DNA from: Phytophthora colocasiae
Lineage: Eukaryota; Oomycota; Peronosporomycetes; Peronosporales; Peronosporaceae
DNA: 64,000 nucleotides
Direction of reading: 5' to 3'
NCBI GenBank assembly: GCA_018806915.1
Contig: JAGKQI010000066.1
Span: 289,586 to 353,585, forward strand
In this document: positions 9,491 through 42,802 of the stretch, in pieces
Layout of the letters: each line of letters begins with the position of its first letter
Numbering within the stretch: the first letter of the stretch is position 1
The notes under the pieces: model-generated
The model's database searches: none
The model's input: the letters and a program-made list of their open reading frames with translations, nothing else
What the model was told of the DNA's origin: nothing
Made by a program: the position numbers and the translations under genes

Positions 9491-9674
9491 GGCAGGGTCT
9501 GCTGCAGAGTCGGTGGGAATAATAGAATGGTGGAACGGACCTGAGTTTCAATTGGTTAAAAACGATGCGAAAACATGGAATTGTGGCTCTAGCCACATTT
9601 TGTAACGACAAATGTACAAGAAACTTCAGCAGCGCGTCACACATGGCTTCATGTTGTTGTTACCACTCGCTCTT

Positions 9675-11680: not shown

Positions 11681-12006
11681 GGAGAGGAAGGGAGAGCGGT
11701 GGGAAGTTGCTGGAGCTTTGACGGCGAATGATTTAATGGCTCGGATATTGCGAGGCTCTGACACAACCAACCATACAAAAAACAAGTCAAAGGATGCTGA
11801 CCGTAGGAAAATGCTCGGACGAAGAAACGAGCAACTGACGCCTCCGACGTCGACAGCAAGGATAGAGTGGACTATTAACTGGTTCTTGAGCTTAACGACA
11901 GGAGGACGGAGCTCCTGACTCAAATGGACGTCTACAGTAGACGACAGTCTCATCGACTACTTGTTTGTGCTGATTCTTCTCGTCCATTCCCTTTCCTGAG
12001 CTAAAG
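11681..12006. other. Intergenic between QARS and U1A/U2B'' genes
   Basis: 326 bases that hold the upstream region of the tRNA synthetase and the 3' end of the snRNP gene; both genes are on the minus strand. The synthetase frame remains open through most of it, so an N-terminal extension of up to 91 codons cannot be excluded. No other feature seen. Confidence 0.45.
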
Positions 12007-12774
12007 CTACTTCTTGGCAAACGAGACCTTGAGGGTGTCGGTGGGCGTGAGCTTGAAGCCGAAGAGTCCTTGAAGAGCGATGGCGGCCTGAGCTTCGTCA
12101 CCGAACTCCACGAACGCCAGACCCTTCTTACCTGGCACCATACGGACTTCCTGCAACACAAAGAGCATCAATTAATACTCAGATCTGCCCACTGTCAACT
12201 AGAACACCATCCATTGTCGTACCTTGAAGCCCTGGTACTGCTTGAACAGTACGCTCAACATCTCCTGGTTACACGACTCGGGCAGCTCCTGAAGGAACAA
12301 AATCTTGTTGGGCACGTTTTGTGCTGGCGGAGCTGGCGCCCTCGACGCTGATGGCGTTGCCTTGCCATTCTCTCCTGCCTGCTTCTTGGCGGTAGTCTGT
12401 AATGGAGCGGGCTTGGGCTCACGCTTCCGCTTCTCGCGCGGGACGAAGGTGCCTTCGCGTCTTGCGATGACGTCGGCCTTCTCCTTGGCAAAGTGGATGA
12501 CCACAGGCTTGTCGAATAGCGTCGACCCGTTTACCGTGCGTAACGCATTGGATGCGCTCGGGATGTCATTAAATGTGACCCAAGCCTGGCCTCGCAGTCG
12601 TCGAGCACGACCCATGACAATCTCCAGGATCTTGCCGTGCTGCGAAAGAGTCGCGTACAGCGTGGCCTTCATGCGGTCAGCCTTGATCTTGTCATTCAGA
12701 TTGTTTAAATAGATCGTGTGGTTGGGCGGCACGTCCGCCGTCTCCACGGGCGTAGCAACTGCGGCTTCGGTCAT
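12007..12774 (-). CDS. U1A/U2B''/SNF-family spliceosomal snRNP protein (2 exons)
   Basis: Exons 12774-12223 and 12150-12007 join in phase 0 through a 72-bp intron (GTACGA...CAG) to 231 residues, close to human U2B'' (225) and shorter than U1A (282). RRM1 (about 19-97) has RNP2 IYLNNL, RNP1 RGQAWVTF, and the NHTIYLNNLNDKIK start that is diagnostic of this family. A basic linker follows (PREKRKREPKPAP). RRM2 (about 150-228) has RNP2 ILFLQELP and RNP1 KGLAFVEF, and is split by the intron. These proteins bind a stem-loop of U1 or U2 snRNA. From sequence alone I cannot say which; many lineages use a single protein for both. Confidence 0.9.
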
Positions 12775-13007
12775 AGCTCCTTGGTTATGGTTTTGGCGCT
12801 ACCCAAAAGTCATAAAAACGAGGTTGTTACAATAGTGACAAACAGAACGTTGATTTGACAAAACTTGGTATAGTGTCAAGTGTCCGCTTTTGTCAAGTGT
12901 CACCCCCTATATTGACCAATGACAGCTGTGTATTGGGGTTAGACAAGTAGGATTTGCACTGTTTTGTTAAGTGTCATCCCCGAATTCCTTGAAGCCATGG
13001 CAGCATA
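12775..13007. other. Promoter-side spacer between the snRNP gene and the retrotransposon cluster
   Basis: 233 bases upstream of the snRNP gene, up to the first base of the element C LTR. It contains several copies of a TGTCAAGTGTC-like motif (12870-12980) and a CCAAT element (TTGACCAATGACA). No target-site duplication for the LTR that starts at 13008 can be tested, because the other end of the cluster is rearranged. Confidence 0.4.
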
Positions 13008-13224
13008 TGTGGTGGAGCGGATCTGCCAAAATCTCGTTAGGGCAGGTCCCGATCACCACTTGCACCCAGACACCGACTAACGGAGGGGGTCCCCCGATGA
13101 TCCGTGATCTAGCTGTGTGTAGTATCCACCTTGTGTACCCGTCGGTAGGCGGGTTACGCTCTTCCAGGTGACTTCTGAAGGTGTCTTGTAGGTCGGAAGA
13201 AGGTCTTGGGTGACGCAGGGGTTT
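13008..13224 (-). repeat. Element C 3' LTR, outer fragment (left of element A)
   Basis: Begins TGTGGTGGAGCGG and matches the first 217 bases of the LTR at 41437. It is cut by the insertion of element A and resumes at 21181. Confidence 0.88.
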
Positions 13225-13685
13225 TGTAATGGGTCTACCTAGACCTATTAGGTGGCGTACACGTGCGCTTACGTGTATGAGGAAGCGTGCAATTAGAATA
13301 GACTTAATTTAAGTATACTTATTTAAATACGTATAATTAAATCAAATATAACTAAATTAAACTGCAAAAATACCGTAAAATGAGAACTGTTATTGAATTT
13401 GGCATAAGCCAATTATGGACCTCCTAAAACTGTTTGTTATCTATTTCTAAAGGGTCTGCCAACGTGTGGTTGGCAGAAACTCTGCTCAGTGATTGGTAGA
13501 AATCCGTTACTTTCTACCAATAATATGCACAAATGCACACGAACCATCCAATAATGTGGTTCGCCCATGTATCCTTTGGTGTGTACAGCACACCAAGGTC
13601 TGAGGCCCATTTCCAACCTCTAACAGTTATCCTAACTGTTAGAGTTACAAGTGGTACAACCACTTGTACGTGTAACCCCGTTACA
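13225..13685 (-). repeat. Element A 3' LTR
   Basis: 461 bp, TG...CA ended. It differs from the other LTR at 20721-21180 only by one A in an A run (about 13363). It contains perfect hairpins such as 13493-13502/13511-13520 and 13620-13629/13633-13642. A purine-rich tract (GGGGTGATGG on the minus strand, 13686-13695) abuts it as a probable polypurine tract. Confidence 0.9.
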
Positions 13686-13785
13686 CCATCACCCCGTTAA
13701 GATTCGACGTATCGGTCTCGATACGTCAATCAACAGAACTTGACAAGACCGTCAAGTTCCCGAGAGAAATCCGAGTTCATTTCGC

Positions 13786-14993
13786 AATGGACTGATCTCG
13801 ACGACCTCGTGATGAGGCCTCGGACGCTTCAAGCTCGAAGCGTCCGCGCAGTGATGATGAAGCGTCCCCCATGTCGAGGGCGCTCACTGCACCGCGCACT
13901 GATCCGCCAGTGCGCACGCCATGGATGCCTACTGAGGCGGAGATCCATGACCGGTTCGGTGCTAGCTCACCACCGAACCCGATACTGTTGTACTCATGCA
14001 ACAGTATCAACGACGACGACGTCGCCGCTAAGGTTGTCTTTGAGTCCGAGACTCAAAGACGCGACTACTATATCGGGCTCTTCCACGAGCTCCGATACTA
14101 TGCAGCGAAGACTTCGCGCATGAGCAAAGTGCCAGAGTGGCAGGCACTTTGTCAGTCGTGGAACGCCTTTGTTGATATCTTCAACAAAGACCCGAAGGCA
14201 TATCGCGAGCGCGTTGCTGCGGCTCGCGATCGCTACTACACTTACACTACACGTGGTAAGTGTGAACGCCTCCATGATCAGTCCATGGAAGCGGGGATCC
14301 CATGTGCCGTTCCCTTTGGCACACCCTGTCCGTGTTGCCCACCCTTGGCAACACGCCTTACCGAACGTGATCTCCTGGGGTACACGGTCGTCCGTGTACC
14401 CGATCACATCAAGGAACTCCGTGGTCGTATTGTGCCACGCGAAGCTCCGAGTGCTGTGGCTGACCGCATGCGGCACTCCTCGTGCAGAGTTTAACCCTGC
14501 AAGTTATGATGGGCTTCATGCGCCCTCACACCATGTCCGGAACGTCCTCCATCCGGACGTTCCGCGGCTCCCATGTATCTCGATGAGGAGGAAATCCTCT
14601 CCAACGAATACGAAAACGAACCCCTTGAGAGTTCGTTCTCTTATGAGCCACAATCCGCTCAACAATCCAGCGGATCGCTCCACGCGCGTCGCGGCAACGG
14701 CGGCGGAGGGGTGGAACACTCCCTCCGCATGGTCAACGCTATGACGCCATGACGATCGTGCCCTGCACGATCGAGTTGCTGCGCTGGAGCAGACACAGAG
14801 CGCTGAGATAGCTGCTCTGAAGCAGGAGGTTCGTGTCCTCCGTGCTGAGGTCTGCGAGGCAGCTCAGACTGCCTCGAACCTCTCGTCCGGTCTTGGGACG
14901 AGAGTGAACCAGTTGATCGACCGTGTCGACGGTCTTCGAGAAGGCCTTCCAGGCCTCTCGCACTCCCTCAGTCGGACTACCAACCCTAGGTAG
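13786..14993 (+). pseudogene. Element A antisense extra frame (coiled-coil end), frameshifted
   Basis: On the strand opposite to gag-pol, between integrase and the 3' LTR. An open stretch from 13871 to 14494 encodes ETQRRDYYIGLFHELRYY, then a helical region (KVPEWQALCQSWNAFVDIF). Other frames continue it. The last piece (14745-14993) is a clear coiled coil: RALHDRVAALEQTQSAEIAA, LKQEVRVLRAEV, TRVNQLIDRVDGL. Its tail overlaps the end of pol antisense. It corresponds in place, and in having a C-terminal coiled coil, to the antisense frame of element B. Frame breaks prevent calling one protein; function unknown. Confidence 0.5.
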
Positions 14994-17900
14994 TCCGTGC
15001 TGCACGTACGGCTTCAACCGCCCGACGTAGAAGGTCGGGTGGAGTCTCATGCTGGACGGTATGTCCAGCCGGTACGCGTTGCCGTGCCGTTCAAGTACTT
15101 TGAACGGCCCAATGAATCTTGGAGCAAGCTTGCTTGCTCCAAAGTCAGACACTGCATGTCTAGGTAGGTTTTGTGTAGCTAACAAAACTAATGAACCCTT
15201 TTCGAATTCATTTGTGTTGCCTCTACCAACAGTATCAGCGTTCAGCTTCTGTCGATCGACAGAAGCTGCGATAGCATCCTGGACAAACCGTATGACGGCT
15301 TGTCTTCGCTGGACAAAGTCTAGCGCACCCGAGCTGAATCCTTTCAGCTTGTCGCCCTTGTCAGCAGCAGGCCCTGCCTGCTCGCTATCATTTCTCATGT
15401 CTGTGCCCGGCACAGACATCGCGCGCTCGTTCCTGCTCGAACGAGACGTCGCACGCGTCACCGCAGCTGATAGTGTGCTGCTATCAGTTGCATTCTGCGG
15501 TTGTTCGGACGCAACCGTAGATCCTCCCCCACTTAAGGAGGAAGCTACCCCGCCGAGCATGCTCGGCAATCGTGGATGCCTCATGGCGTTCACGAAGAAC
15601 GGTGTATGCCCTGTGGAGGCATGCACCGAGTTGTTGATGGCAAACTCTGCCATCGGCAAGCACTCGCTCCAATGCGGGAACGAGTGAGCGTAGCTCTTCA
15701 ACGTGTCACCCAATACACGGTTGACACGTTCGGTCTGTCCGTCCGTCTGCGGATGATCCGCAGTCGACATTGATAACTGTGAACCAAGAAGTGTAAACAC
15801 TTCTTGCCAGAACCGCGCTGTGAAGCGTGGATCACGGTCCGACACAATGTCGAGCGGCATGCCATGGTGTTTGAACACCATGTCAACAAACAGTCGCGCA
15901 GTCTGCGCGGCTGTAACAGTAGCCGGGACGGCAGCAAGATGAACCATCTTGCTGAATCGGTCCACAAAAACAACGATGCCCGTCCTCCGCTTGCTGTCAG
16001 GCGGAAGACCGAAGACGAAGTCCATGGACATGGACTGCCAACACTCCGACGGAGTCGGTAGTGATTGAAGAGGAGCCTGCGAGAACTGCGCAGGCTTCAC
16101 GCGTTGACAAACCTCGCAAGCACGTACGTACTTGCGCACCCACTTGTACTGGTGGTGCCAGTAGAAGTCACGCGTGAGAAGAGTGTATGTCTTCTCACGA
16201 CCCGGATGCCCTGCCGTGGGGCATCGTGATACTCGAACATGATCCTCAACCGGAGGTCATGATCATTCGGAACGACAATGCGATCCGCATTGTCGTCTAC
16301 TACACTAATACAACAGTAGGCCTTCGTGTACACGATAGCGGTGTACACGAGCTCGAAGATGAGGGGTTAGCTTCCGACGTGCCACGTCGGAAGGTGCTGC
16401 GAGGAACTCCAGCAGCCCCTTCGCGTCTGCATCCCTTGCATACGCGTTCTTCACGTCGTCAATCAACGTTGACGACGGCACACTTGTCCTCACGACGCCA
16501 ACAGCGTTGGCGTCGACCGTCTCCGCATAGTCAGGTCGACGCGATAACGCGTTGGCCACTACATGATCTTCCGGGTTTGTACTCCACCCGGAAGTTGTAC
16601 TCCGCGAAGAAGGACAACCATCTCGCCATACGTTGCGAGATGTGCGGCGACTTAATCGCCGTACGCAATGATGCGTGGTCTGTATAGACCACGAACGGTC
16701 TACTCCCAAGTAGATACACTCGGAACTTTGCGAGTGCATACTTCATGGCAAGGAGCTCCTTGTCATGTACGGGATAGTTACGCTCAGCTGGCTTCAGCTG
16801 ACGCGATTGATAGTAGACTACACGATCACGCCCTTCGTGATCGTGTTGCATCAATGCACATCCGATTGCAAAGTCGGATGCATCGCACACTACGTGGAAT
16901 GGACGATCTTGGTCCGCCACGGCCAAGATCGGCGCTTCAGTCAAGCCCTGCTTGACTGCACCGAATGCATCCTCGCACTCGGTCGTCCAAATCCACTCAG
17001 CTTCTTTCTTAGAAGCTGTGACAACAGGCGAATCTTGCCCGCATAGTTGTCCACGTACTTGCACAAGTACGTGGCAAATGAGAACTGCCTCAGTTCCTTC
17101 ACATTGGATGGCGTGGGCCATTCATTGATCACTCTGACCTTCTCTGGGTCAGGGCGCACGCCGTCTTTCCCACGAGACACCCCAGCACGGGTATCTCGCT
17201 CGCCCCGAAGATACACTTCTTCAGGTTCGCATAGAGCTTATGTTTCCTCATAAGCTCTGGCAGCTTCCGGAGATGCACCTTGTGCATCTCAATGTCCATC
17301 TTCCGTTCACAGCCCGGCTGTGGACGAACACGTCGTCGCAGTAGCTCGGTGCGAAGTCGCGCACAGAGAGCAATAGATGTGTCACGCATCTATTGAACGT
17401 CGCAGGGGCGTTTTTAAGCCCCTGTGGCATGACGAGCCACTCCCAAAGCATACCGCTTGGAGTGCTTACCGCAGTAAGAGGGGTGTCCCTCTCACGCATG
17501 AGGATCTGATAGAATCCATCACGCAGATCTAGAGCACTGAAGATAGTGCTCAAGGCCATCGAATCGATGATAACATCTTGTCGCGGTATTGGCGTCTGCG
17601 CCGGTATCGTCGCATCGTTCAGCTTGTTATACGCATGAACGATGCGCCAGCCGCCCTGTGATTTCTTAACACAGAACGTTGGAGCACTGTGCGGGTACTT
17701 TGACTCCCGCACTTGACCTGCAAGACGACGACTTTCAAAGAAGTCGTCGATCGCTTGCACTTGTTCACGCGGCAGTGGCCACTGCCGTGTAACACAGTAC
17801 TTCGTGCCCGGCACGAGATCAATCTCGTGCTGTACGCCCTTGTCCTTCGGAAGCTCCGAAGGAATCTCGTCAGGAGTACATCCTTGTACTCCCGCAGAAT

Positions 17901-19698
17901 CTCGTAATAGGGACTCGACTTCAACGAGTCCCAACTCTGCTCCTCGAAGCGTTGCTTCTTGGTCTTCGCACTGAGGGTGTCATCGCCCTCAGTGATGCCA
18001 TCGACGACGAGCTGCTTCAGCTCCTCGGCTTCGCGATCCACTCTCTCGATATCCGAGAGAATGCAAATTTGTTCGATGCGTCCATCGTACAAGTCCCGCG
18101 CGAAGCGCTTCCAACTCATCGTTGGAAGTGCGGTCAACGCCGACGCACACGTCGGCGGATTCTCCAACCGCATCCTCTGGTACTGTAACCCAGTACCAGT
18201 ACGTGTCAAGACGTTCAACGTCTCGACACTCGGTGTCTGCACTGCAGATACACCCGTCTCAGTCCCGGACTGAGACTCGCGCAGCTCCCTGAGCTTGCGC
18301 CGCGAAGGTCTACCATGGAGCCCGGCTCCAGGTGCTCCACGTCCAAGGCATCGCACCTTGGACGGGACGTTATCGCAATCGTCAGCGGATTCCTTCCGCT
18401 GACTCGCACTATCAAGCCCGGCGAGTGCCGCTCATCGCGTGCAGCGCTGCTGCGCACGTGAGCACGCAGGTTGTTCGGGTGCTGGGCGTTTGCAACCGCC
18501 AGCACCTCCTGCCGCGCAGTCGGTTCCCTGAACCGCTGCGCCTCCATCCGCTCCCGGAGCGGAAGAAGCAACCGCATCGTCGACTCCCGGAGTCGACGTG
18601 CTCTCGCTAGCTTCCTGCGCTAGCGAGTGTTCGCTTGTACACATATCATCCGTTCCCAGAGCGGATGTACGATCGCTAGTTCCCGGAACTAGCAGCGACT
18701 GTTCGCCTTTACACGTCTCATCAGCTCCCGGAGCTGATGACCGATCGCTAGTTCCCAGAACTAGCAGCGAAGCGCCAGTGGCGTCAGCTCCCAGAGCTGA
18801 CGCACGTCTTTCGGTTCCCCGAATTTTATTTTCTTCGTCAACTCCCAGAGTTGACGCGACGTCGTCGGCGCGACCCTTGGGGGCTTGAAGTACCTCCAAG
18901 GATACCGGTAATACCGGTATTTTACCTTCTCTCAGGTGAATCGCATTCACCTGACCATCACTCATGTGACAAACATCATTCAGATGTTTACGCGTCAGGT
19001 GATTCACATTCACCTGACCATCACTCATGTGACCGCGACCCTTCGGCTCAGATTTCTGAGTCGACACACATTTTCTCACAACGACTCCCGGAGTCGTTGA
19101 TGGTCGCCGGCGGCGATCGGAGGCAGCGGCGGCCGCTGCTGCCTCAACTGGGATCCATGCACCGGCCGGTGCATGTGCAGCACTGACAGGGCCATCGCTC
19201 TCTGTCGCGCATGTGTTGTTGAAGCGTACGAGCGTACGCTTCTCCCAGTTGATCACCGGGTCATGCCGTGCAAGCCACGGCATGCCTAATACCAAGTCGA
19301 ACTTATCGTCTAGATCCAAGACGATAAGATCTTCTACAAACATCCTTCGTTTGTAAGAGAAGCGCACACGGACTACGCGCTTCTCAGTCCTCACGGTGGC
19401 ACCTGTTGCCAACCGCACCTCCAACACGCCGCGAGGCGTGTCAGCCTCTTCGAAGTCAAGCCTTCGAAGACTTCCCTGTCGAACAAAGTTGTTCGACGCG
19501 CCCGAAATCCACTAGGGAACGAAGAGAGGTCGCTCTCTTCGACATCACGTTCAGGATGACAAGGTTTGGCTTGTCATCTTGCAGCTTACAGCGAGAAACC
19601 TTCTCGCTGGGGGCAGCAGTCCTCATCGTCGCGTGTCCAAGCTCGACACGCGAGACTGCATCACCAGTAGGACGCCCCGCGCCTACTGGTCGCCAGCG
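14739..19698 (-). pseudogene. pol: Element A pol: protease, RT, RNase H, integrase (frameshifted)
   Basis: Pol begins in the -1 frame relative to gag at about 19698. Protease: the active-site block around 19490-19505 would read LVDSGAS but carries an extra T. VLDLDDKFDLVLGMPWL follows. RT (about 17880-17250) has TRQWPLPREQ, SALDLRDGFYQI and the catalytic box YCDD (17332-17343), where most Gypsy elements have YxDD with another second residue. RNase H (about 16960-16560) keeps [24 protein letters not shown] and YTDHASL. Integrase (16139-14739) has the zinc-finger end CEVCQRVK and the catalytic Asp, Asp and Glu in [16 protein letters not shown] and [10 protein letters not shown]. The integrase end (FIGPFKVLERHG) lacks a chromodomain. 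A PR-RT linker with repeated HMSDGQVN and PG-x-D/S units lies at about 18550-19050. Confidence 0.8.
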
Positions 19699-19704
19699 TT
19701 TTTT
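19664..19704 (-). promoter_or_regulatory. Candidate -1 programmed frameshift site, element A gag-pol
   Basis: Heptamer A AAA AAC at 19704-19698 sits in gag frame as ...TCA AAA AAC. An 8-base spacer (19697-19690) follows, then a perfect 8-bp stem (19689-19682 with 19671-19664) around a 10-base G-rich loop. The gag stop TAG (19685-19683) lies inside the 5' arm. Pol continues open in exactly the -1 frame (RWRPVGAGRPTGDAVS). The element is full of hairpins, so the stem alone is weak evidence; heptamer, phase and spacing are the stronger part. Confidence 0.7.
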
Positions 19705-20671
19705 GAACGCCCGCCCGCTGTGCACTCGCGTGCATAGTGACCGATGTTACTACACTTGTAACATCGAACCTTGCCATATCTACGTTGCTGTTGACCAGCA
19801 GTCGTAGCACTCGAGAGGTCCATAGGTTCCGGACCTCCCGTCTTCACAACAGGACGCGCCGGCTTCGGCGCGCGTTTCGCATGGAGTTTAAGCTTGACGC
19901 CGGCTAAACTCCTCTTGCATTGCAAGGCTGATCGCCTCCTCGAGAGTATTCGGATACTCTCGGAAGAGATATGTTTGACGGGACCATCTCTTGGTCCTTC
20001 ATGAACGTGACGACCTTGGTCGCCTCGTCGATCGGGTTGGCCACTATGTTCGATACCAAGTATCGAGCACGCTGGGCAAAGGTGTGAACATCATCCTTGC
20101 CCTGTTGCAGATCGAGAAACTCCGCTCTCGATCTGAACTCGTTCTTCGGAGGCTCAAACGCAAGCTTGAGTTCCTCCTTGAACTCCTCGTACGTGATGAA
20201 GCACGTAGGATCCGAGGGTCGGCGCCCATAGGCCTAACTCCTCGCACGTCCGCCAAGACATGACATGGCGAACGCGACCTTCGACATCGGATCGACGATA
20301 CGTCGAGCCGCAACGGCTGTGTCGAGTTCGACAAGCCACCGAAGGAGGGTCTCGTCCTCCTTCCTCGTGTAGGTACTCACGTGGAGTTTCAGCGACTCCA
20401 CGCGTGGCTTAGGGGAAGCCACCGAGGCAGCAACATCTCGTTGCTCCTTCACAATGTACCCCAGAGCAACACCGTGTTGCTCTGTCGGCGATAGCGTACG
20501 AAGCATCGTAGCTACCTCTGCCTCTCCAATGACTTGTGAAAGTCTTTGGAGAGCTTCCCACTCTGGATCTGACAGGTGGGCACAGTCCGTGCGCGTCACG
20601 GACATGTGAGGGGTCCCAGCGGATCCCTCATCCATTGGGGAGTTCTCTACCCCGCGTTCGTATGACTCCAT
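19683..20671 (-). pseudogene. gag: Element A gag (capsid and zinc knuckle), frameshifted
   Basis: Starts at ATG 20671, about 30 bases after the primer site. The first 145 codons are open (LHVSTYTRKEDETLLRWLVE, SKVAFAMSCLGGRARS), a typical Ty3/Gypsy capsid. The frame then shifts at least twice; the remaining capsid blocks lie at 20270-19930. The last 80 codons include [10 protein letters not shown] and a single CCHC zinc knuckle (CYKCSNIGHYAREC). They end at TAG 19683 at the frameshift site. Gag packages the element RNA in a cytoplasmic particle. Confidence 0.75.
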
Positions 20672-20700
20672 ACGAACGAACAGCAGTCGGTCGTGGGACG

Positions 20701-20718
20701 GACTACAAAGTGCTACCA
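20701..20718 (-). promoter_or_regulatory. Element A primer-binding site
   Basis: Two bases inside the 5' LTR, the minus strand reads TGGTAGCACTTTGTAGTC. It starts TGG, as expected of a complement to a tRNA 3'-CCA end. Element B has nearly the same sequence at the same place. The priming tRNA is not identified. Confidence 0.65.
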
Positions 20719-20720
20719 GG

Positions 20721-21180
20721 TGTAATGGGTCTACCTAGACCTATTAGGTGGCGTACACGTGCGCTTACGTGTATGAGGAAGCGTGCAATTAGAATAGACT
20801 TAATTTAAGTATACTTATTTAAATACGTATAATTAAATCAAATATAACTAAATTAAACTGCAAAATACCGTAAAATGAGAACTGTTATTGAATTTGGCAT
20901 AAGCCAATTATGGACCTCCTAAAACTGTTTGTTATCTATTTCTAAAGGGTCTGCCAACGTGTGGTTGGCAGAAACTCTGCTCAGTGATTGGTAGAAATCC
21001 GTTACTTTCTACCAATAATATGCACAAATGCACACGAACCATCCAATAATGTGGTTCGCCCATGTATCCTTTGGTGTGTACAGCACACCAAGGTCTGAGG
21101 CCCATTTCCAACCTCTAACAGTTATCCTAACTGTTAGAGTTACAAGTGGTACAACCACTTGTACGTGTAACCCCGTTACA
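20721..21180 (-). repeat. Element A 5' LTR
   Basis: 460 bp with TGTAATGGG and CCCGTTACA ends; near-identical to 13225-13685. It ends directly at the 3' copy of the target duplication GGTTT. Confidence 0.9.
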
Positions 21181-22346
21181 GGTTTGAGGCGGCGTGGAAG
21201 TTCTTCACTCCACCTCGGGGTACTTGATCCCGGTCGTAGGCGAGTTCTCGAGCCTTGATCCGGGTGCCTGGTTCTTGATCCAGGTCTTCCAATAGTCCAA
21301 TGTTCGGGATTCAGTCCCTTCCTTTCTGTTGTTTTCTGCTTCCGATAGCGGGGGTCTTGAGGGGGCGAGATTCGACGGGATCCTTAGGCTAAACAACCAA
21401 TTCCTTCCGATCCGATATATGCACTTAAAGGATAGTTCACTAGATAGGGCAAAGCTGGCCAATATATTATCCAGACTTAACCGCTATACTAGGTCACGTA
21501 TCCTTACCTCCCTGACGCTTGTAGGGCCAATGTAGTTCCCGGTTCCAGGCGTAGCGAAGACACTTGAGTGGTTCAGGGCAAATTCGAGTCTCTTTATGGT
21601 TATTCCTATGCCTACTAATCCCATCCTGATTTACTATCCTACGATCACATGACACTGGCTACATAGCTGATCCCCAGCTTGGTTCCCCTAACCCTGATCG
21701 TGAGCCGATTCCGCACTTAACCGAAGCTTGATCTCGCACTTAACCGAAGCTTGATCTCGTACTTAACCGAAGCTTGATCTCGTACTTAACCGAAGCTTGA
21801 TCTCGCACTTAACCGGGACTTGATCTCGTACTTAATCGGGACTTGATCGCCGCCTGATCGCCGCCTGATCCCGCTTGATAATCCTTCGGAGAGTCCGGAT
21901 CAGTCCACCAGAAGAGTCTGCGTCGCGCCTGGGGCTGAGCTTGATCCAGAGTTGATCTCGTACTTAAACGGGAGAAGATCACTGCGTGATCCTGCGTGAT
22001 CCCGCTTCGTCGCCGCCCGGGGAAGTAGGATCATGCTGTTAGAGCTTCCAGGGCGCCAGGGTAAGCCGATCGTGCTCGCCCAGGACCCCGTCATCGCTGA
22101 TCGCGCGAGAACATCCTTGATTTCCCCATTCTTCCTCCGGCAGGGTTCGGATCACCCACGAACACCGCTCCACTTGCTCCTCCGCCGGTGTCTCCGTTGC
22201 CTGTTCCCCGGCGGGACCCATCGTACCTTCGTCTGATTCGACCCAGATCTGGGGATCACAGGTCCCCCCTGTCGCTCGTTCCGACTCTATTCGGGTTCGT
22301 GGCTGATATCGCCTCTCCGGGAAAAATTCTCGTCCGCTTCACCACA
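21181..22346 (-). repeat. Element C 3' LTR, inner fragment (right of element A)
   Basis: Continues the LTR from 13224 after a duplicated GGTTT and ends CCGCTTCACCACA. Together the two parts make an LTR of about 1.38 kb. The polypurine tract on the minus strand (GGGGGCGGA, 22355-22347) abuts its inner end. Open frames of 60-85 codons on both strands recur in every LTR copy but show no protein character. Confidence 0.88.
21712..21850. repeat. 23-bp tandem repeat inside the C LTR
   Basis: Six copies of a 23-base unit (C[GC][TC]ACTTAACCGAAGCTTGATC type), with the last two reading CCGGGACTTGATC, followed by two GCCGCCTGATC units. The LTR at 41437-42802 has five copies, so the array has changed length between LTRs of one element. 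Confidence 0.75.
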
Positions 22347-22449
22347 TCCGCCCCCAGCACGTAAGTTGAGCTGCCGCAGCTCACTTCGGGTTTATTTCCA
22401 CATTCACCACCTGGAACACAAGTCGTTCAAGTACCACCACTCCCTCACG

Positions 22450-23878
22450 ATGTCCGATCCTCACGATGTCCGATCCGCCTCCCTCGCCCCCTTTGACGCC
22501 GAGAACGCCCTCGAGCGAGCACTCGATCCGCCCGATCCACCGCCTCCCGCTTCTCAACCCCGGGGTAGAACCTGAGCTGGTCACCTTGCAAGCGAGACTG
22601 GTCCACAGCCAACGGATGCGCGAAACCTTGAGTCGCGATCGGGACCACCTGGACGACACCGTTCGCCGGTTGCGATCCGACATGGAGGATATGGAGCGCT
22701 TCCGGGACGACCAGGCGGAGGAGATCTTGCGACTGAACGCCGAAATCGCTCGTCTGCGGTCGGGAACCGGAGATGTTATCGGTGGGGACACGATCGCCGC
22801 CTTGCAGGATCAGCGGGCTCAGCACGACGCCGAACGGCGGGAGTCTGAGCAGCGAATGGCCCGGATCCAGGCGCGGCTAGACTCTGCGCTCGAGGATCTC
22901 GACTTCCGGCTGGCCGAACTTCGCATAGCAGGGGAGACGGAGATTGAACTCCGGGATGAGCTTCAGGATCGCGAACGGGAGCTCGCCGCCGTGCGTCATG
23001 ACTTGACCCTCACTCAGCGTAGCCTTGATCGCTGGCAGAGGAACGATTCCTCCCAAGGTCCACTAGCGGCCATGGCCATGCCCGCTGATCAGACTCGCCC
23101 TACGGCAGAGGAGGCTCGGTTGAGGTTGGAGTTGACGCGGACCCAAGCGGAGTTGCTCGCCGCTCGAGCCGAAGTCGCGTACCTGGAACGCGAGGCAGAG
23201 GATCACCAGGCTGAACTGGCTCGGGCACACCTCGCCTTGGAGGACGTATCCGCACCGGATTCTCGCGCCCCGCCTTTGGATGCAACCGCCGATGCCGCCG
23301 CCGTATCCAGCCTGGAGCAAGATCTGGCAGACGCCTTGGGAAATCTGGAAATAATCCAGCACGACCGGGACCAGCTCTCCGTCCAGCATCGTGCCGCAAT
23401 TGCCGAGCGGGATCAGGCCGTCGCAGACCTGGATCAGGCCCGCCTCGACCGGGATCAGGCGATGCAAGATCTCAATCGAGTCACGGTGGATCGTGATCGA
23501 ATCCAGGTCGACCTGGACGACGCCACCCAAGATCGTTTATCGGTCCTCGCAGACCTTGACGTGGCCCGTTCCGCCCGGGATGCGGCGACACAGGAACTCG
23601 ACCAACTCCAGCGACAGAACGCGTCGGCCCTCGCTGACCTCGACCAACTCCAGCGACAGAACGCGGAGCTTCGACAGGCTCATCAAGAGCTGGACGCTGA
23701 TTATGCCGAAGCCGAACAACAGCTGCATCACGCCGAGGATTCCTCTGCTCGGTTGTCCTCGTGGATCGCGGATCGACGGGCGGCTCGTGCCACCAAAAGA
23801 TCTCGAAGCGCCTCCGCTTCCCGGCCGTTCCTCCTTCCTCACGCAAGCGTCAGCTCAGAGCTCCTCAGCACCCCGTGA
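22450..23878 (+). CDS. Element C antisense extra frame, part 1: long coiled-coil protein
   Basis: Lies opposite to gag-pol, starting about 100 bases from the inner end of the 3' LTR. From ATG 22466 it is open for 470 codons; ATG 22450 starts a different frame of 42 codons. Residues about 50-450 are an almost unbroken coiled coil with heptads rich in Asp, Arg, Leu and Gln: MRETLSRDRDHLDDTVRRL, RDQAVADLDQARLDRDQA, LDQLQRQNASALADLDQLQR. A 42-base exact internal duplication adds one heptad block. In the second unit (42906 onward) the equivalent ends in a basic stretch (PSSRKRPARSSS) that looks like a nuclear signal. No known domain. It could be a structural or regulatory accessory protein of the element. 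Confidence 0.6.
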
Positions 23879-23934
23879 TCTAAAAAACTGCGGCTACCGA
23901 AACTCCCGGATCAACCCAGCCTGTCACACCAACG

Positions 23935-29229: not shown

Positions 29230-29230
29230 T

Positions 29231-29298: not shown

Positions 29299-30270
29299 AT
29301 GGAGCCAGAAGCATACGCTCACTTGACTCCGAGTCAGCGGGACACGCTTAACAAGCTTACGTCCTTGCTGGGCCCTGAAGGTATGGCGCACCTTGCGTCT
29401 CAAGGGCCGGAGGCCGTCAACGCGCGCCTGGAGGCATTTGCCTCGTACGAGAACGCTCTCGTTGAACACATTCAGCGGAATGTAAAAGGAGTTAATCCCG
29501 CTCCGAGAGCTAAGCCCGTCACGCTCAGCGTGAAGACCTTTCACGGGCACGAAGGAGAGAACCTCCTATTGTGGACCCGAGAGGTCGAAATGGCCATGGG
29601 AGCCGCTATGCTCCAGTTGGAAGGCCAACGCGTGGCGTTCGCCATCTCTAAGCTCGAAGGTCGAGCACGAGAATGGGCCTTGACGTCTGGGACGTCGGTA
29701 GAAATGGCCTTCCCCACTTGGGGTGAGCTTAAGGCCAAGCTTACGCAAGTGTTTGCTCCACCTAACCAGGCGTATCGCGTGCGGTCACGCTTCCTTGCTT
29801 GCCGACAGGGCAAGAAGGACCTGGTGGACTATGTCCAAGAGCTACGCACGCTCATTGCCGGCATGGCTGCCGATCCTCTACCTGAGGTGGTCACTGTGAC
29901 TATCTTCATGGAAGGTCTGAGAGCTGGCGTGGCCAGGACGGAGGCATTCCGTCAGAATCCTCGCACCTTCGAGGACGCTGTTAGCGTGGCATTGAATGCT
30001 GAACACAACTTTAAGTTGTCGAGGGTCGGTGCTAACAGCACAGGGTCCGGGGGGCCCGAGCCCATGGACCTCAGCTATGCTGAAGATGAAGTAGCCGAGC
30101 TACGAGCTGCGGTGCAGCGTATGAGCACTCGTCGGTGCTACACGTGTGGTAGTCCCACACACCTGAGGCCTAACTGCCCTCTGCGCAAAGAGCGCGCCGG
30201 CCAGACTGGCCGCAACCCTGCCGCGAGTCCCGCTTCGGGCTCTGCCCAGGGAAACGACGGCTCCCAGTAG
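29299..30270 (+). CDS. gag: Element B Gag
   Basis: The ATG at 29299 ([20 protein letters not shown]) gives 323 residues. The capsid has the Ty3/Gypsy gag blocks [58 protein letters not shown] and [15 protein letters not shown]. Near the C-terminus, [14 protein letters not shown] precedes one CCHC zinc knuckle ([14 protein letters not shown]) for RNA binding. It ends at TAG 30268-30270, inside the stem of the frameshift signal. Confidence 0.92.
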
Positions 30271-30290
30271 ACGCGGGGCGGTCTACTGGG
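30249..30290 (+). promoter_or_regulatory. Candidate -1 programmed frameshift site, element B gag-pol
   Basis: Heptamer GGGAAAC (30249-30255) is phased G GGA AAC in gag. A 7-base spacer follows, then a perfect 10-bp stem: CCCAGTAGAC (30263-30272) and GTCTACTGGG (30281-30290) around an 8-base loop. The gag UAG is within the stem. The pol frame lies at -1 and is open from 30174, overlapping gag by 97 bases. Pol has no ATG before the protease; its first plausible alternative start is GTG 30309. Confidence 0.85.
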
Positions 30291-33200
30291 GAAGAACTGA
30301 GTTCTGCAGTGCGTGAGAGGCACTGGGGCTCAGCCCCGAAGAGCTCCGTGCTCTTGAACACGGAACGTTTGGGCAAGCAGGGCTTGCTGGTCGTCCATGT
30401 GGACGTGAAGGGCTTCGAGAAGCCGTGGATCGTGTTGATCGATTCAGGAGCGTCTGGCAACTACGTCAGACGCTCCACCGTTGAGGGTAGTCAGCAATAT
30501 GCTGAGGCGCTTCGAGCGCGAAGAGGTGACACCGTCACTGTCCGTCTAGCGACGGGCGTCCGTGTCACGGCAGCCAAGGTCTCCATGGACCTGCGGCTGA
30601 AGTTCTTAGACTTCGACAGCGTAGAAAGCTGTTTGGTCTTGGACCTGGATTCGAGGTACGACCTCATCCTTGGTATGGCGTGGCTGGAGCGCCACGAGCC
30701 ATGGATTGACTGGAGGTCGAAGACCTTAGGTGCTACGCACTTCTCTCCTAGTGGAGCTTTGGCGAGTCATGAACCCACCTCTGCTAGGAAGCAGAAGCGC
30801 TACTGGCGCGAGCATCGAGCCGAGTCGGCAATGATGCTGGAAGTCGGTGTGTCCGAGTTAGTGGACAGCACCGAGTGCGAGGACCGCAGTCCTGTTGAGC
30901 GCATAGCGCTGGTTGACAGTGAGTCAACGTGTGGGCAAAGCTCACGTAACCCCTGTGAGGCGGCACGTACTCCGCCGAGTGACGCCGGTCATGGACCGTC
31001 ACTGGATGCCGATGGCATCGGGCCTTACCAGGCCGTGAACTGTGGGGCGGCACGTACTCCGTCGAGTGATACTGGTCGTGGACCAAGTCGATCGCTGAGT
31101 GTCTCTGACACTGGACCTGTTACGGTCATTGATTGTGCAGCGGCACGTACTCCGCTGAGCGGCATCGGTCGTCGACCGAGTGGATCGCTGAGTGTCCCTG
31201 ACACTGGGCCGGGAGAGGCCGAAACTTGTGCGACGGCACGTACTCCGTCGAGTAGACGCTCTTCGGCTAGGCGAAGACGTCGTAAGGCCCTTTGGGCAAG
31301 ACGCTCTGCGTCTGAGTCATCCGTGACGTCAAGTGCCGACGCACCGGAGGGCTGTGGGCAGCTATACACTCTGGTTGATGGAGTGGGCGGTAGTGCCGAA
31401 GGCAGTGTCCTGCTGGACGACTTGCCAAGTTTTGACAAGCTCCTTGAGCTAGAAGAGATGTCCTTCGCCGACTTTGGCGATGCCTTGAAGGCTGGCGAAT
31501 TCGCCGAGGTGGTCATCGTTCGACCTGAGGAGGAGTTAAACTCGTCGTCCCTCGTTGACGAGTCCGTCTTGGCCGAAGTCAAGAAGGCGTTGAACGCCAG
31601 GAGTGGATCGGAGATCCTCAAGAATCCCTCGGATCCCTTCCACTCCTTGCTGAAGGAATATGGAGACGTTGTCTCGAAGGAACCACCGAGTGGCCTGCCT
31701 CCCGACCGAGGCGTTCGTCATGAGATCGACTTAGTTCCCGGAACTAAATACTGCGTGACCCGGCAGTGGCCTCTTCCTAAAGAGCAATGCGACGTCATTG
31801 ACGCCTTCTTCCGTGCGAAGCACGCGGCGGGTCTCGTGCGCGAGAGCAAGTCTCCGCATTCCGCGCCAACGTTCTGTGTCAGAAAGCCGAATGGCAAGTG
31901 GCGTATCGTTCACGCTTTTAACAAGCTCAACGCTGCCACGATTCCGGCGCAGACGCCGATTCCTAGGAAGGATGTTCTTCAGAACAACATGGTGGGCTGC
32001 ACCATGTACAGTGCGCTCGACTTAGTCGATGGGTACTATCAGCTGCTCATGCGAGCCAGTGATATTCCGCTTACAGCGGTGAGCACCCCGAGCGGTATGC
32101 TCTGGGAGTGGCTCGTCATGCCCCAAGGGCTGTCGAATGCGCCTGCAACGTTCAATCGTCTAGTGACGCAGTTGTTCAGGCCCCTACGGGCATTCGCACA
32201 GACGTACTTTGACGACGTGTTCGTCCACAGTCAGGCCGAACACGGCAAGACTGACGTCGAGGTACACGTGGAACACGTGAGAGCGGTACTCGAGTGCATG
32301 CGCACCAACAAGTTGTACGCCAACGCGGACAAGTGCGTCTTTGGCGCGGAAGAAATCCCTTTCCTAGGGTGCTTCATTGCGAAGCATGGCCTTCGTGCTG
32401 ACCCAGCAAAGGTCAAGGCCATTGTGGACTGGCCGGTTCCCTTGAACCAGAAGGACCTGCGAAAGTGGCTGGGCTTGGCCAACTACTTGCACAAGTACAG
32501 CGAGAACTACGCTGAGTTGGCTCGGCCACTGACGGATCTCCTTAAGAAGGATGCCGAATGGGTATGGTGTGCTGAGCACGAGAGCGCGTTCACTCGTATC
32601 AAGGATAGCCTGCTTCAGGCACCGATACTGGCGTTGCCAGACCCCGATCGTCCGTTCATCGTCGTCTGTGACGCCTCGGACTTTGCCATTGGCAGTGCTT
32701 TGCTACAAGCGGACGCCGAAGGGCGCGAACGCGTCATTGCGTTTGAGTCTCGGCAGCTCAAGGCTGCTGAGAAGAACTATCCAGTTCATGACAAGGAGCT
32801 ACTTGCGATGAAGTACGCTCTCGTCAAATTCAGGGTTCACCTGCTCGGCTCCAAGCCGTTTGTGATCTACACGGATCATGCGTCACTACGCACAGCGACG
32901 CAGTCGCCTCACCTCTCGCAGAGGATGGCCCGATGGCTCTCCTTCTTTGCGGAGTATAACTTCGAGGTGAAGTACAAGCCTGGCAGGCAGAACGTCCTCG
33001 CTGACGCGTTATCACGTCGCCCGGACTATGAGTTATCTCATGTCACCTCGGTGACGTCGTCCGTGACGGACATGGTTCGAGCAGCGTACGCTCAGGACGA
33101 CTCCTGTGTCGCACTGCTTCAAGCTCTCGGGAGCAATGAGTTTAAAGACTCAAAGGTGACTCTGTCACGACGCCTAAAGGCGAGACTCCAACGCTACAGC

Positions 33201-35003
33201 CTGGAAGGCGGTCTGCTGTACTACAGCACGGGTCAGGATGACCCACCACGAGTGGTGGTTCCTCACGATGAGGATCTGAAGTACCGTATCCTCTATGAGG
33301 CCCATGACACACCCACAGGCGGCCACCTCGGTCGCGAGAAGACGTACGGCTCGGTGAGCTCCATGTACTGGTGGCCGAAGATGTACAAGTGGGTCAGCAC
33401 ATATGTGCGCACGTGCGAGACGTGTCAGCGGGTTAAACCCTCGCCGCATGCGGCTGCGCCTTTGGCGAGCTTACCTGTACCCTCTGGGTGTTGGCAGTCC
33501 ATAAGTATGGACTTTGTGTTTGGCCTGCCGAAGGACTCGGCAGGCAACACGGGTGTGGTGGTCTTTGTTGACCGTCTGAGCAAGATGGCTCACCTAGCGG
33601 CTGTGCCGGACACCGTCGATGGCACTGGTACAGCGACGATCTTCATCGATCGGGTCTTCCGCCAGCATGGGCTGCCTGAGACCATTGTCTCGGATCGAGA
33701 TCCCCGTTTCACGGGTCACTTCTGGACGTCCGTCTTCAAGGTGCTGGGCACTCGACTGGACATGTCCACGGCGGACCATCCGCAGACCGACGGTCAGACC
33801 GAACGCGTGAACCGCGTCCTGGAGGACATCCTCCGCAGCGTATGCGCTGAAACGCCGAAGCGTTGGAGCGCTATGCTCCCTCTCGTTGAGTTCTCAATGA
33901 ACAATGCGGTGCATGCCTCGACAGGCTTCACCCCGTTCTACGTGAACGGCCTTGCGCATCCGCGCGTCCCGCTCACTCCGCCACGCGGTGGCCTCGGGCT
34001 TAGTGGGGGAGAGGCTGTGCCATCGCTCGAATCCGATCTTGCTGATATCAGCCCTTCTGCTGTGCGTAAACAAGTCGATGACTTCCTCTCGGTGAGATTG
34101 AGCGTATTGCGCCGTGTACGTGACGCGATGGCTGAAAGCCAAGACGTTCAGAAGGAACAAGCTGATGCAAAAGGTAGAAGCAATGTATGGGAATTTAAGG
34201 TCGGTGACCAGGTTTTATTAAACGCTAAGAACCTACCTACACATGCAGTGTCAAGTGTCTTTAAGACGAAATTGCGTCCGCGTTTCATCGGACCGTTTAC
34301 GGTCGTGGCCAAGAAGGGCCTGGCATACACGCTTGATTTGCCAAAGCGGATGCGAACACACCCGGTGTTCTACGTCGGCTTGCTTAAGCCATATCGGGAC
34401 CCCGCGGGGGTGAGCGCGGAGGCGCTGGCACCGACGACACGTGCCCAGGCTGCGTCATCTGCAGCAGTAACGCCACCTGACCCCGCAGCTCAGCGAGCTG
34501 AAGCTCCTGCTGATGCAGGCGAGCGGTCAGGGACTGAGGCCCTTCGAGCCAAGCCATTCGGCTCTCGATCTCCTCCATGTCGTGGGCGAGACGGGCATGC
34601 GAATGCCAAACACTCTCGACGTTCCCTTGAAGGGACTGAGTCTGACTCTGGAGAGTACCGATCGAGTGATCGAGTTGATACCAAGCGCGCTGCGACAAAT
34701 AGCGCTCATCACACTCGTCGAGTATTGCGTTCCGCAGCGAATCGGCCTCCTCCGCCGTTGCTCGATGAGCAGGGGACTCCCCACTACCACGTGGAGCGCC
34801 TGATGGCGCGGCGTCGCCACCGTAGTCAAAACCAGTATCTGGTGAAGTGGCGTGGATATCCTCATTCCCAAAACTCGTGGGAGTTTGAAGGCCCCCTGAG
34901 GCAGGACTGCCCTGACGTCGTGGACGCTTTTGATCGCGCAGATCGGGAGCGCCCGAAGGGCTCGAGGTCGACCACTCGGTCGACACCCGCTTCTCACCAC
35001 TAG
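30256..35003 (+). CDS. pol: Element B Pol: protease, RT, RNase H, integrase, chromodomain
   Basis: Expressed as a Gag-Pol fusion if the -1 shift works. Protease: [12 protein letters not shown] (Asp codon 30441) and [20 protein letters not shown] Ser/Pro-rich linker with repeats follows. RT spans about 31720-32400: [23 protein letters not shown] and the active site YFDD (32205-32216). RNase H keeps [31 protein letters not shown] and [10 protein letters not shown]. Integrase zinc finger is H-H-C-C ([10 protein letters not shown] ... CETCQRVK); its catalytic Asp, Asp, Glu are in MDFVFGLP (33508), VSDRDPRF (33690) and GQTERVNRV (33796). The chromodomain (about 34785-34950) reads [10 protein letters not shown] ... 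[16 protein letters not shown]. Its aromatic residues would read histone methyl-lysine and steer integration. The whole frame is uninterrupted. Confidence 0.92.
30955..31262 (+). repeat. Imperfect tandem repeats in the element B protease-RT linker
   Basis: Four copies of a unit of 75-95 bases that encodes (C)xAARTPxSDxGxGPS plus LSVxDTGP. They lie in the low-complexity segment between protease and RT. Such a linker tolerates length change, and the corresponding linker in element A is also repetitive but with different units. Confidence 0.75.
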
Positions 35004-41436: not shown

Positions 41437-42802
41437 TGTGGTGGAGCGGATCTGCCAAAATCTCGTTAGGGCAGGTCCCGATCACCACTTGCGCCCAGAC
41501 ACCGACTAACGGAGGGGGTCCCCCGATGATCCGTGATCTAGCTGTGTGTAGTATCCACCTTGTGTACCCGTCGGTAGGCGAGTTACGCTCTTCCAGGTGA
41601 CTTCTGAAGGTGTCTTGTAGGTCGGAAGAAGGTCTTGGGTGACGCAGGGGTTTGAGGCGGCGTGGAAGTTCTTCACTCCACCTCGGGGTACTTGATCCCG
41701 GTCGTAGGCGAGTTCTCGAGCCTTGATCCGGGTGCCTGGTTCTTGATCCAGGTCTTCCAATAGTCCAATGTTCGGGATTCAGTCCCTTCCTTTCTGTTGT
41801 TTTCCTCTTCCGATAGCGGGGGTCTTGAGGGGGCGAGATTCGACGGGATCCTTAGGCTAAACAACCAATTCCTTCCGATCCGATGTATGCACTTAAAGGA
41901 TAGTTCACTAGATAGGGCAAAGCTGGCCAATATATTATCCAGACTTAACCGCTATACTAGGTCACGTATCCTTACCTCCCTGACGCTTGTAGGGCCAATG
42001 TAGTTCCCGGTTCCAGGCGTAGCGAAGACACTTGAGTGGTTCAGGGCAAATTCGAGTCTGTTTATGGTTATTTCAATGCCTACTAATCCCATCCTGATTT
42101 ACTATCCTACGATCACATGACACTGGCTACAGAGCTGATCCCTAGCTTGGTTCCCCTAACCCTGATCGTGAGCCGATTCCGCACTTAACCGAAGCTTGAT
42201 CTCGCACTTAACCGAAGCTTGATCTCGTACTTAACCGAAGCTTGATCTCGCACTTAACCGGGACTTGATCTCGTACTTAATCGGGACTTGATCGCCGCCT
42301 GATCGGGACTTGATCGCCGCCTGATCCCGCTTGATAATCCTTCGGAGAGTCCGGATCAGTCCACCAGAAGAGTCTGCGTCGCGCCTGGGGCTGAGCTTGA
42401 TCCAGAGCTGATCTCGTACTTAAACGGGAGAAGATCACTGCGTGATCCTGCGTGATCCCGCTTCGTCGCCGCCCGGGGAAGTAGGATCATGCTGTTAGAG
42501 GCTTCGGGGCGCCAGGGTAAGCCGATCGTGCTCACTTGGGACCCCGTCATCGCTGATCGCGCGAGAACATCCTTGATTTCCCCATTCTTCCTCCGGCAGG
42601 GTTCGGATCACCCACGAACACCGCTCCACTTGCTCCTCCGCCGGTGTCTCCGTTGCCTGTTCCCCGGCGGGACCCATCGTACCTTCGTCTGATTCGACCC
42701 AGATCTGGGGATCACAGGTCCCCCCTGTCGCTCGTTCCGACTCTATTCGGGTTCGTGGCTGATATCGCCTCTCCGGGAAAAATTCTCGTCCGCTTCACCA
42801 CA
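41437..42802 (-). repeat. Element C LTR shared by unit 1 (5' LTR) and unit 2 (3' LTR)
   Basis: 1366 bp, complete, TGTGGTGGAGCGG to CCGCTTCACCACA. It has no nested element. It serves both units of the tandem array, as expected of LTR-LTR unequal recombination. Confidence 0.88.

What the first reader, a model, noticed from the sequence alone, without database searches (positions are those of the whole stretch)
13225..21180. Element A is a chain of short perfect hairpins from LTR to LTR
Wherever I read element A, on coding and LTR sequence alike, perfect inverted repeats with 6-10 bp arms and 1-10 base loops follow one another every few tens of bases. Examples (arm/arm): 13493-13502/13511-13520; 13620-13629/13633-13642; 13981-13990/13999-14008; 14378-14387/14392-14401; 16273-16282/16286-16295; 16371-16380/16384-16393; 16821-16830/16836-16845; 17051-17060/17065-17074; and a 26-bp perfect palindrome at 15243-15268. 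Host genes at 2-12 kb and element C do not look like this. I know of no described class of LTR element with this property. It could arise from template switching that perfects quasi-palindromes during reverse transcription. It could also be selected, for compact packaging of genomic RNA, or for feeding or evading small-RNA pathways.
Basis: seen in the sequence. Interest (0 to 1): 0.82.

Follow-up and report, generated by a model that had tools for sequence, protein, structure and literature searches.

The report
Retrotransposon built of perfect hairpins
A young jumping element in a Phytophthora-like water-mould genome carries over a hundred mostly different, perfectly paired short hairpins along its length, genes included, far beyond chance, and the lineage that makes new copies seems to keep them intact.

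Summary
Element A (13225-21180) is a young Ty3/gypsy LTR retrotransposon (LTRs identical at 460 of 460 aligned bases, 5-bp target duplication, empty site in the window) in a Phytophthora-like genome. It holds 136 non-overlapping perfect hairpins (arm >=7, loop 0-12) against 6.1 in dinucleotide shuffles; six ORFs hold 94 against 6.9 in codon-preserving shuffles. Host DNA is at chance; related element B has a weaker excess. Twenty other copies show similar density. Folding excess is 34-35% (B 13%, host -1%; highest vertebrate RNA-virus value cited in one paper 23%). Stems are strand-symmetric, randomly spaced, without clear codon-phase preference. Variants shared among copies avoid arms (35/1820 sites) compared with loops (39/452) and spacers (227/4712); private variants do so much less. 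Stem strength is more uniform than chance. Loops are exactly inverted between copies (11 of 43 multi-base changes, 0.67 expected), a footprint of template switching. Best reading: hairpins built partly by template switching and kept by selection on stem stability. Their use is unknown. Eight full-text searches listed no description of such an element.

The parts
13225..13685 (-). LTR (3' LTR in the sense of the element), 461 bp, TG...CA ends; hairpins of arm >=7 at 13258-13277 and seven between 13455 and 13686
20721..21180 (-). LTR (5' LTR in the sense of the element), 460 bp; identical to the other LTR at 460 of 460 aligned bases, one 1-base length difference
13220..13224 (.). target site duplication GGTTT, left copy
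21181..21185 (.). target site duplication GGTTT, right copy
41437..41948 (+). empty site of the same insertion in another copy of the host repeat (one GGTTT)
13225..21180 (.). chain of 136 non-overlapping perfect hairpins, arm >=7, loop 0-12 (102 with arm >=8, 36 with arm >=10)
15243..15268 (.). 26-bp perfect palindrome, inside the ORF 14739-16256
18432..19511 (-). ORF with aspartic protease domain (RVP_2) and a linker (about 18547-19100) rich in hairpins, several with core CTCCCGGAG and differing outer arms
17248..17979 (-). reverse transcriptase (RVT_1) reading frame piece; 12 hairpins of arm >=7
16531..17121 (-). RNase H (RT_RNaseH) reading frame piece; 11 hairpins of arm >=7
14739..16256 (-). 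integrase piece: zinc-binding, rve core, Tf2-1-like SH3; 25 hairpins of arm >=7
13278..13454 (.). AT-rich LTR segment without hairpins of arm >=7 in this copy (copy L010 has an 11-bp-arm palindrome there)
30174..35003 (+). comparison: element B pol ORF (1609 aa), related element with a weaker hairpin excess (13 vs 5.4 at arm >=7 in codon-preserving shuffles)

Best explanation
Element A belongs to an LTR retrotransposon family (Ty3/gypsy) whose sequence, LTR and genes alike, has been turned into a series of short perfect hairpins. SHOWN: the hairpins exceed the controls, are common to the copies examined, and their pairing is not shared with element B beyond chance. SHOWN: variants shared between copies avoid arms more than loops and spacers, at third codon positions too, while private variants do so much less. 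SHOWN: exact loop inversions occur, the mark of strand switching within hairpins. INFERRED: the chain arose in the A lineage after the split from B (loss in B is not excluded), seeded by template switching on single-stranded intermediates (RNA or cDNA in reverse transcription, or host replication), which replaces sequence without changing its length; protein function filtered the products; copies with stable stems of mostly 7-11 bp left more offspring. INFERRED, weakest: the advantage is that both strands fold on themselves, so sense and antisense strands anneal less, while stems stay too short to be cut as double-stranded RNA.
For: Excess over dinucleotide and codon-preserving controls. Similar density in 20 copies. 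A vs B: of arm pairs changed on both sides 33 of 101 pair in B, as by chance; 40 of 43 mapped hairpins show no indel against B. Shared variants: arms 35/1820, loops 39/452, spacers 227/4712 (Fisher arms vs loops 1.6e-10, vs spacers 1.4e-8); private 159, 66, 451; shared:private lower in arms than in spacers (p 2.7e-5) and loops (p 4e-4). Third codon positions: shared arm 6/299, spacer 39/563, loop 6/82. Arm length falls with GC (rho -0.24, p 0.006; shuffled control 0.03) and stem-energy spread is below null (3.13 vs 3.64; 0 of 500 nulls as low). Exact loop inversions 11 of 43 vs 0.67 expected; with >=3 changes 6 of 11 vs 0.15. Strand symmetry: folding excess 33.6% sense, 40.6% antisense; fixed one-mismatch stems GU 7, AC 13, other 9.
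Against: Compensated pair changes among copies are few (4 of 1106 pairs), so selection for pairing rather than for the exact letters rests on energy uniformity, not on covariation. Copying of one arm is not seen against B (|L-R| 1.77 vs control 1.74; 23 vs 13 hairpins, 7 ties, p 0.13; protein version p 0.97). Random spacing and even codon phase (27, 35, 32 of 94) fit a blind mutational process better than design. Shared G-U changes are somewhat more tolerated than other breaks (shared:private 16:46 vs 19:113, p 0.07), which would point to the sense RNA. Counting loop changes merely nearer to the inverted form gives 16 of 43 vs 9.65 expected, and the spacer control (0 of 259) had an expectation of 0.0, so it has little power. 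The variant tests treat sites as independent although copies are related, all from one assembly; L022 and L027 are neighbours on one contig. The anti-annealing role has no direct evidence.
Confidence: 0.5

Rival explanations
1. Purely mutational: an unusual tendency to template-switch (of the element's reverse transcriptase, or of host replication on this DNA) perfects and re-perfects hairpins; they have no function and persist because they are constantly remade.
For: Loop inversions; no fixed G-U excess; strand symmetry; random spacing; even codon phase; LTR and coding alike; weaker excess in related element B. [quoted passage not shown]
Against: Re-perfecting should copy about half of the new arm changes into the other arm (inference); only 4 compensated pairs are seen beside 33 shared single breaks, though protein constraint would hide some. 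It does not by itself predict the arm-length/GC trade-off. Host DNA in the window shows no excess.
Confidence: 0.3
2. Selection on the structure of the genomic RNA only (genome-scale ordered RNA structure), for packaging, stability or evasion of RNA sensing.
For: Folding excess 33.6-35.3%, above the 15% of SARS-CoV-2 and the 23.4% record cited in PMC7642675 (passages; its shuffling and windows differ in detail); paired sites less variable there and here; shared sense G-U changes slightly more tolerated (p 0.07).
Against: Antisense folds at least as well (40.6%). Fixed imperfect stems do not favour G-U on the sense strand (7 GU, 13 AC, 9 other). Accessibility of 10-nt windows is not lower than in B (0.0158 vs 0.0091).
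Confidence: 0.15
3. Artefact of assembly or chance composition.
For: None found in these calls.
Against: Shuffles, 20 further loci elsewhere in the assembly, domain-level protein homology through the hairpin regions, host DNA of the same window at chance.
Confidence: 0.01
4. Hairpins as a source or decoy of small RNAs.
For: Phytophthora makes 21-nt RNAs mainly from inverted repeats and some gene families, and longer ones from transposable elements (PMC3804510, passages).
Against: Stems of 7-13 bp are, by general knowledge, too short for Dicer; no small-RNA data could be examined here.
Confidence: 0.04

Closest known systems
[quoted passage not shown]
   Same: Hundreds of consecutive local stem-loops through coding sequence; folding energy far below shuffles; paired sites less variable.
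   Different: Here an LTR retrotransposon; over a hundred perfect stems, structure equally strong on both strands; excess about 34% against the 7 to 23% given there for structured viruses.
Coding palindromes in Nematomorpha mitochondrial genes (PMC6649704, abstract and Discussion read)
   Same: Perfect inverted repeats inside working genes, at many places; template switching proposed.
   Different: There up to 284 bp, gained and lost between species and biased in codon phase; here 7-13 bp arms, over a hundred per element, the same places among copies, no clear phase bias.
Template-switch mutations at short inverted repeats in yeast (PMC8604942, passages) and in RNA genes (PMC8794818, abstract and opening)
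   Same: Exact spacer inversion between perfect arms.
   Different: There ten inversion events in coding sequence of yeast strains; here ten loci in one element family, on a dense chain of hairpins.
Oomycete LTR retrotransposons such as Chronos (PMC5348765, term search only)
   Same: LTR retrotransposons of oomycetes with the usual pol domains.
   Different: The terms hairpin, inverted repeat, palindrom and stem-loop do not occur in that text (0 hits each).
Rickettsia palindromic elements (mentioned in PMC6649704; otherwise recalled)
   Same: Palindromic sequence inside coding genes.
   Different: Those are copies of inserted repeats; here most hairpins have their own sequence and 40 of 43 mapped ones show no indel against B.

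Membership tests
Ty3/gypsy LTR retrotransposon | Paired LTRs with TG...CA ends and target site duplication | tested here: met
Ty3/gypsy LTR retrotransposon | Domain order protease, RT, RNase H, integrase | tested here: met
   order by coordinates on the minus strand, in several frames in this copy
Ty3/gypsy LTR retrotransposon | Closest proteins are retrotransposon pol proteins | tested here: met
   mostly Phytophthora proteins with RT, RNase H, integrase domains, several named retrovirus polyprotein or Tf2; no tree was built
GORS (genome-scale ordered RNA structure) | Folding energy well below sequence-shuffled controls along the whole genome | tested here: met
   22 of 22 windows z < -2, mean excess 33.6%
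GORS (genome-scale ordered RNA structure) | Structure favoured in the genomic (sense) RNA, with G-U pairs used | tested here: not met
   antisense excess 40.6%; fixed imperfect stems GU 7, AC 13, other 9; shared changes lean to G-U, p 0.07
GORS (genome-scale ordered RNA structure) | RNA actually folded in cells | not testable with these tools
   needs structure probing
Nematomorpha-type coding palindromes | Perfect inverted repeats whose arms code conserved protein | tested here: met
Nematomorpha-type coding palindromes | Codon-phase bias of the pairing | tested here: inconclusive
   18, 13, 12 of 43; 27, 35, 32 of 94
Template-switch (quasipalindrome) mutation | Exact inversion of the spacer between perfect arms | tested here: met
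   11 of 43 vs 0.67 expected (10 loci)
Template-switch (quasipalindrome) mutation | One arm copied onto the other (arm homogenisation) | tested here: inconclusive
   5 newly perfected stems; no asymmetry against B
Small-RNA-generating inverted repeat | Small RNAs from the hairpins | not testable with these tools
   no read data

The most novel reading that the evidence does not exclude
A class of retroelements that encodes its proteins and, in the same letters, a genome-long, strand-symmetric series of short perfect hairpins under selection for stem stability, so that both nucleic-acid strands fold on themselves; built by hairpin-templated strand switching and possibly shared by related elements across the genus Phytophthora.
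Probability: 0.4. Interest if true: 0.9.

Novelty: new variant of a known kind. Interest (0 to 1): 0.8.

Why it matters
The element itself is an ordinary Ty3/gypsy kind, but a second, structural code of this density inside pol genes was not in the listings of my eight searches for any retrotransposon. It gives a natural case, with many copies in one genome, for measuring how template switching and selection build and keep hairpins, a question of long standing in RNA evolution (PMC8794818, abstract). If strand-symmetric folding helps an element to spread, it would be a new way for a mobile element to cope with its host. Repeat annotation, small-RNA mapping and RT-PCR on such elements may also be distorted by the structure (inference).

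Tried and rejected
Rejected: chance composition; one inserted palindromic repeat family (arms mostly differ; 40 of 43 mapped hairpins show no indel against B); a chain shared with B (33 of 101 doubly changed pairs still paired = chance; a few single hairpins do look shared, e.g. all 8 pairs of AGTCCATG/CATGGACT in integrase). Regular spacing (gap CV 1.10, 0.98, 0.96 in three copies vs 0.99 random). Low accessibility as the special feature of A.

Weak or mixed: protein-only test whether relatives in other species could still form A's hairpins. RT/RNase H, homologs >=82% identical: 43 of 82 (null 0.34), 11 of 35 (0.12), 3 of 7 (0.04), 1 of 13 (0.01) unique cases with 1, 2, 3, >=4 changed residues; less similar homologs 11/39 (0.25), 7/70 (0.08), 4/61 (0.03), 5/166 (0.01). 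Integrase, homologs >=75%: 60/132 (0.30), 7/55 (0.13), 1/14 (0.04), 2/34 (0.00); less similar ones were also raised: 12/23 (0.38), 8/35 (0.09), 3/31 (0.04), 7/49 (0.01). So conservation across species is possible but not shown. A first version (75 of 165 vs 0.149 in the most similar class) used a copy whose frame is broken in RNase H and was dropped. Viral contigs and genome contigs gave no DNA relatives.
Full report
What was checked. All eight arm pairs and the 26-bp palindrome in the finding are exact. A count of non-overlapping perfect hairpins (arm >=7, loop 0-12) gives 136 in 13225-21180 against 6.1 (sd 2.8) in 15 dinucleotide shuffles; with arm >=10 it is 36 against 0.2. In six stop-to-stop ORFs of the minus strand, codon-preserving shuffles (100 each) give means of 0.6 to 2.1 where 6 to 25 are observed (the ORFs 17248-17979 and 17619-18431 overlap, and two of the six had no Pfam match). 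Window 1-13000 (10 vs 8.5) and 21181-28770 (7 vs 6.5) are at chance; 28770-36830 (element B) has 21 vs 6.6.

What the element is. LTRs at 13225-13685 and 20721-21180 agree at 460 of 460 aligned bases with one 1-base length difference, have TG...CA ends and are flanked by GGTTT on both sides; the empty site with a single GGTTT lies at about 41649 in another copy of the surrounding repeat. Pol lies on the minus strand: RVP_2, RVT_1, RT_RNaseH, H2C2 zinc binding, rve and Tf2-1-like SH3, a Ty3/gypsy element. The copy in the window has its pol in several frames and lacks about 350 bp that 15 of the 20 other copies show at that place (L019 and L022 differ there, L015, L020 and L027 cannot be judged on both sides). 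Its nearest proteins are from Phytophthora (mostly 79-92% over part of the query; one P. ramorum fragment 96% over 58%). A host glutamine-tRNA ligase exon is 95% identical to P. lilii and 94% to a protein whose label suggests P. capsici, each over 68% of the query, so the host is a Phytophthora or near relative, not identified to species. A search of the genome with 1.5 kb of A scored 40 of 877 candidates, all 40 matching the full query at 98% identity or more; a protein search scored 118 RT-RNase H matches of 4127 candidates, at 84-90% to a P. cactorum protein, most without internal stops.

Anatomy of the hairpins. In sense A without the second LTR, 128 hairpins of arm >=7 have arm lengths 7:31, 8:21, 9:43, 10:21, 11:10, 12:1, 13:1 and loops of 0-11. 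Spacing is random: coefficient of variation of gaps 1.10, 0.98 and 0.96 in A, L012 and L010 against 0.99 for random placement. The codon phase of the pairing axis is even (27, 35, 32 of 94; 18, 13, 12 of 43 mapped to B). Longer arms have lower GC (rho -0.24, p 0.006, n = 134; shuffled control rho 0.03, n = 608), and the spread of stem stacking energy is smaller than in all 500 nulls (RNA parameters, 3.13 vs 3.64) and all but 1 of 500 (DNA parameters, 2.07 vs 2.40). In 350-nt windows A has a folding excess of 33.6% (sense) and 40.6% (antisense), copy L012 35.3%, the B ORF 13.0%, host -0.8%. By a similar measure PMC7642675 (passages) gives about 15% for SARS-CoV-2 and 23.4% as the highest in vertebrate RNA viruses; windows and shuffling differ in detail.

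Which strand. Stems with at least 9 pairs and exactly one mismatch in A: 6 G-U, 10 A-C, 7 other on the sense strand; those fixed in at least 70% of copies: 7, 13, 9, besides 21 that are perfect in most copies. A structure selected only in the sense RNA should favour G-U. Among changes seen in arms, shared:private was 16:46 for sense G-U, 9:46 for A-C, 10:67 for others: a leaning towards G-U tolerance, p 0.07 against the rest and 0.26 against A-C.

Variation among copies. Some are partial, and L022 and L027 are neighbours whose fetched stretches overlap. With hairpins defined by the commonest observed haplotype (98 hairpins of arm >=8), variants shared by at least two copies number 35 on 1820 arm sites, 39 on 452 loop sites and 227 on 4712 spacer sites; private variants number 159, 66 and 451. 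Earlier versions with hairpins defined in A (30/2106, 49/582, 222/4296) or allowing a mismatch (65/2684, 35/529, 194/3769) point the same way. At third codon positions of frames aligned to B: arm 6/299, spacer 39/563, loop 6/82 shared. So arms are protected in the lineage that spreads, beyond protein coding, and much less afterwards. Private single changes gain or lose stems (arm >=8) about as random ones do (gain 24 of 588 = 4.1% vs 2.9%; loss 136 of 588 = 23.1% vs 25.1%); of 262 shared changes 20 gain and 26 lose, taking the rarer base as new. Compensated pairs are rare: 4 of 1106. Of 43 multi-base loop changes, 11 are exact inversions (0.67 expected), among them ccctt/aaggg, agc/gct and cgc/gcg; with three or more changes 6 of 11 (0.15 expected). 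Changes merely nearer to the inverted form are 16 of 43 (9.65 expected). Spacer windows gave 0 of 259, but with an expectation of 0.0 that control is weak. Two of the 11 rows are at one locus, so 10 loci. New stems (two or more new pairs) appeared in 5 minority haplotypes, while 35 listed haplotypes, some overlapping, broke a stem by two or more pairs.

Origin. Against element B (window 30174-35003) 43 hairpins map fully, 40 without indel; arms are not more diverged than the rest (third positions 0.64 vs 0.60). Of 441 mapped arm pairs 101 differ on both sides and 33 of those pair in B, which is chance. Hence the chain is not shared with B; that it arose in A rather than decayed in B is inference, as no outgroup DNA was at hand. 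A one-arm-copied signature is absent, but A and B may be too diverged to show it. B itself has a smaller excess (arm >=6: 52 vs 17.4; arm >=9: 3 vs 0.3), and 20 B-like loci, the window's own among them, average 8.7 vs 2.5 at arm >=7, so a weaker form is wider spread.

Judgement. Selection keeps stems of similar strength in the active lineage (likely); strand switching acts on them (loop inversions); their first origin by switching is plausible but not shown; their use is open. I favour a strand-symmetric role (self-folding of both strands, limiting annealing between them) because pairing is Watson-Crick and equal on both strands while stems stay at or below 13 bp, but this is inference. Literature: eight searches of the open-licence PMC library, several with capped listings, listed no paper on such an element. 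Titles and starts of abstracts were seen for listings; passages for PMC8604942, PMC5348765, PMC3522703, PMC3804510 and PMC7642675; abstract and Discussion for PMC6649704; abstract and opening of PMC8794818. Not used: structure prediction and searches of solved structures, which did not bear on the question.

Noticed in passing
window 21181-62344: Pieces of a unit of about 20.47 kb recur head to tail (start-to-start 20457-20498 bases, 99-100% identity in the two-copy 300-nt families D5-D8 and D10-D20); small indels shift the register (723 of the first 1000 bases equal without gaps). Element A is inserted in a further copy of the unit's edge.
   Followed up: partly
window 28770-36830 and loci L029-L048: Element B and its family have a modest hairpin excess (3x at arm >=6 in B) and a folding excess of 13%, comparable to structured RNA viruses in PMC7642675.
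   Followed up: partly
window 18547-19100: Linker between protease and RT has serial hairpins, several with the same inner core CTCCCGGAG but different outer arms, and its length varies among copies.
   Followed up: partly
L015, L020 (first 690 bases in the orientation of A): These two copies lack the usual 3' LTR region next to otherwise normal internal sequence; cause not determined.
   Followed up: partly
L022, L027: Two neighbouring copies on one contig appear to share an LTR and some inverted loops; possibly a tandem arrangement.
   Followed up: no
window 13796-14744: Two overlapping plus-strand ORFs (232 and 206 aa), antisense to the 3' part of A, without Pfam match above cut-off.
   Followed up: no
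window 20700-20720: Sequence next to the 5' LTR reads TGGTAGCACTT on the sense strand and recurs in element B: perhaps a shared primer binding site (recalled notion, not tested).
   Followed up: no
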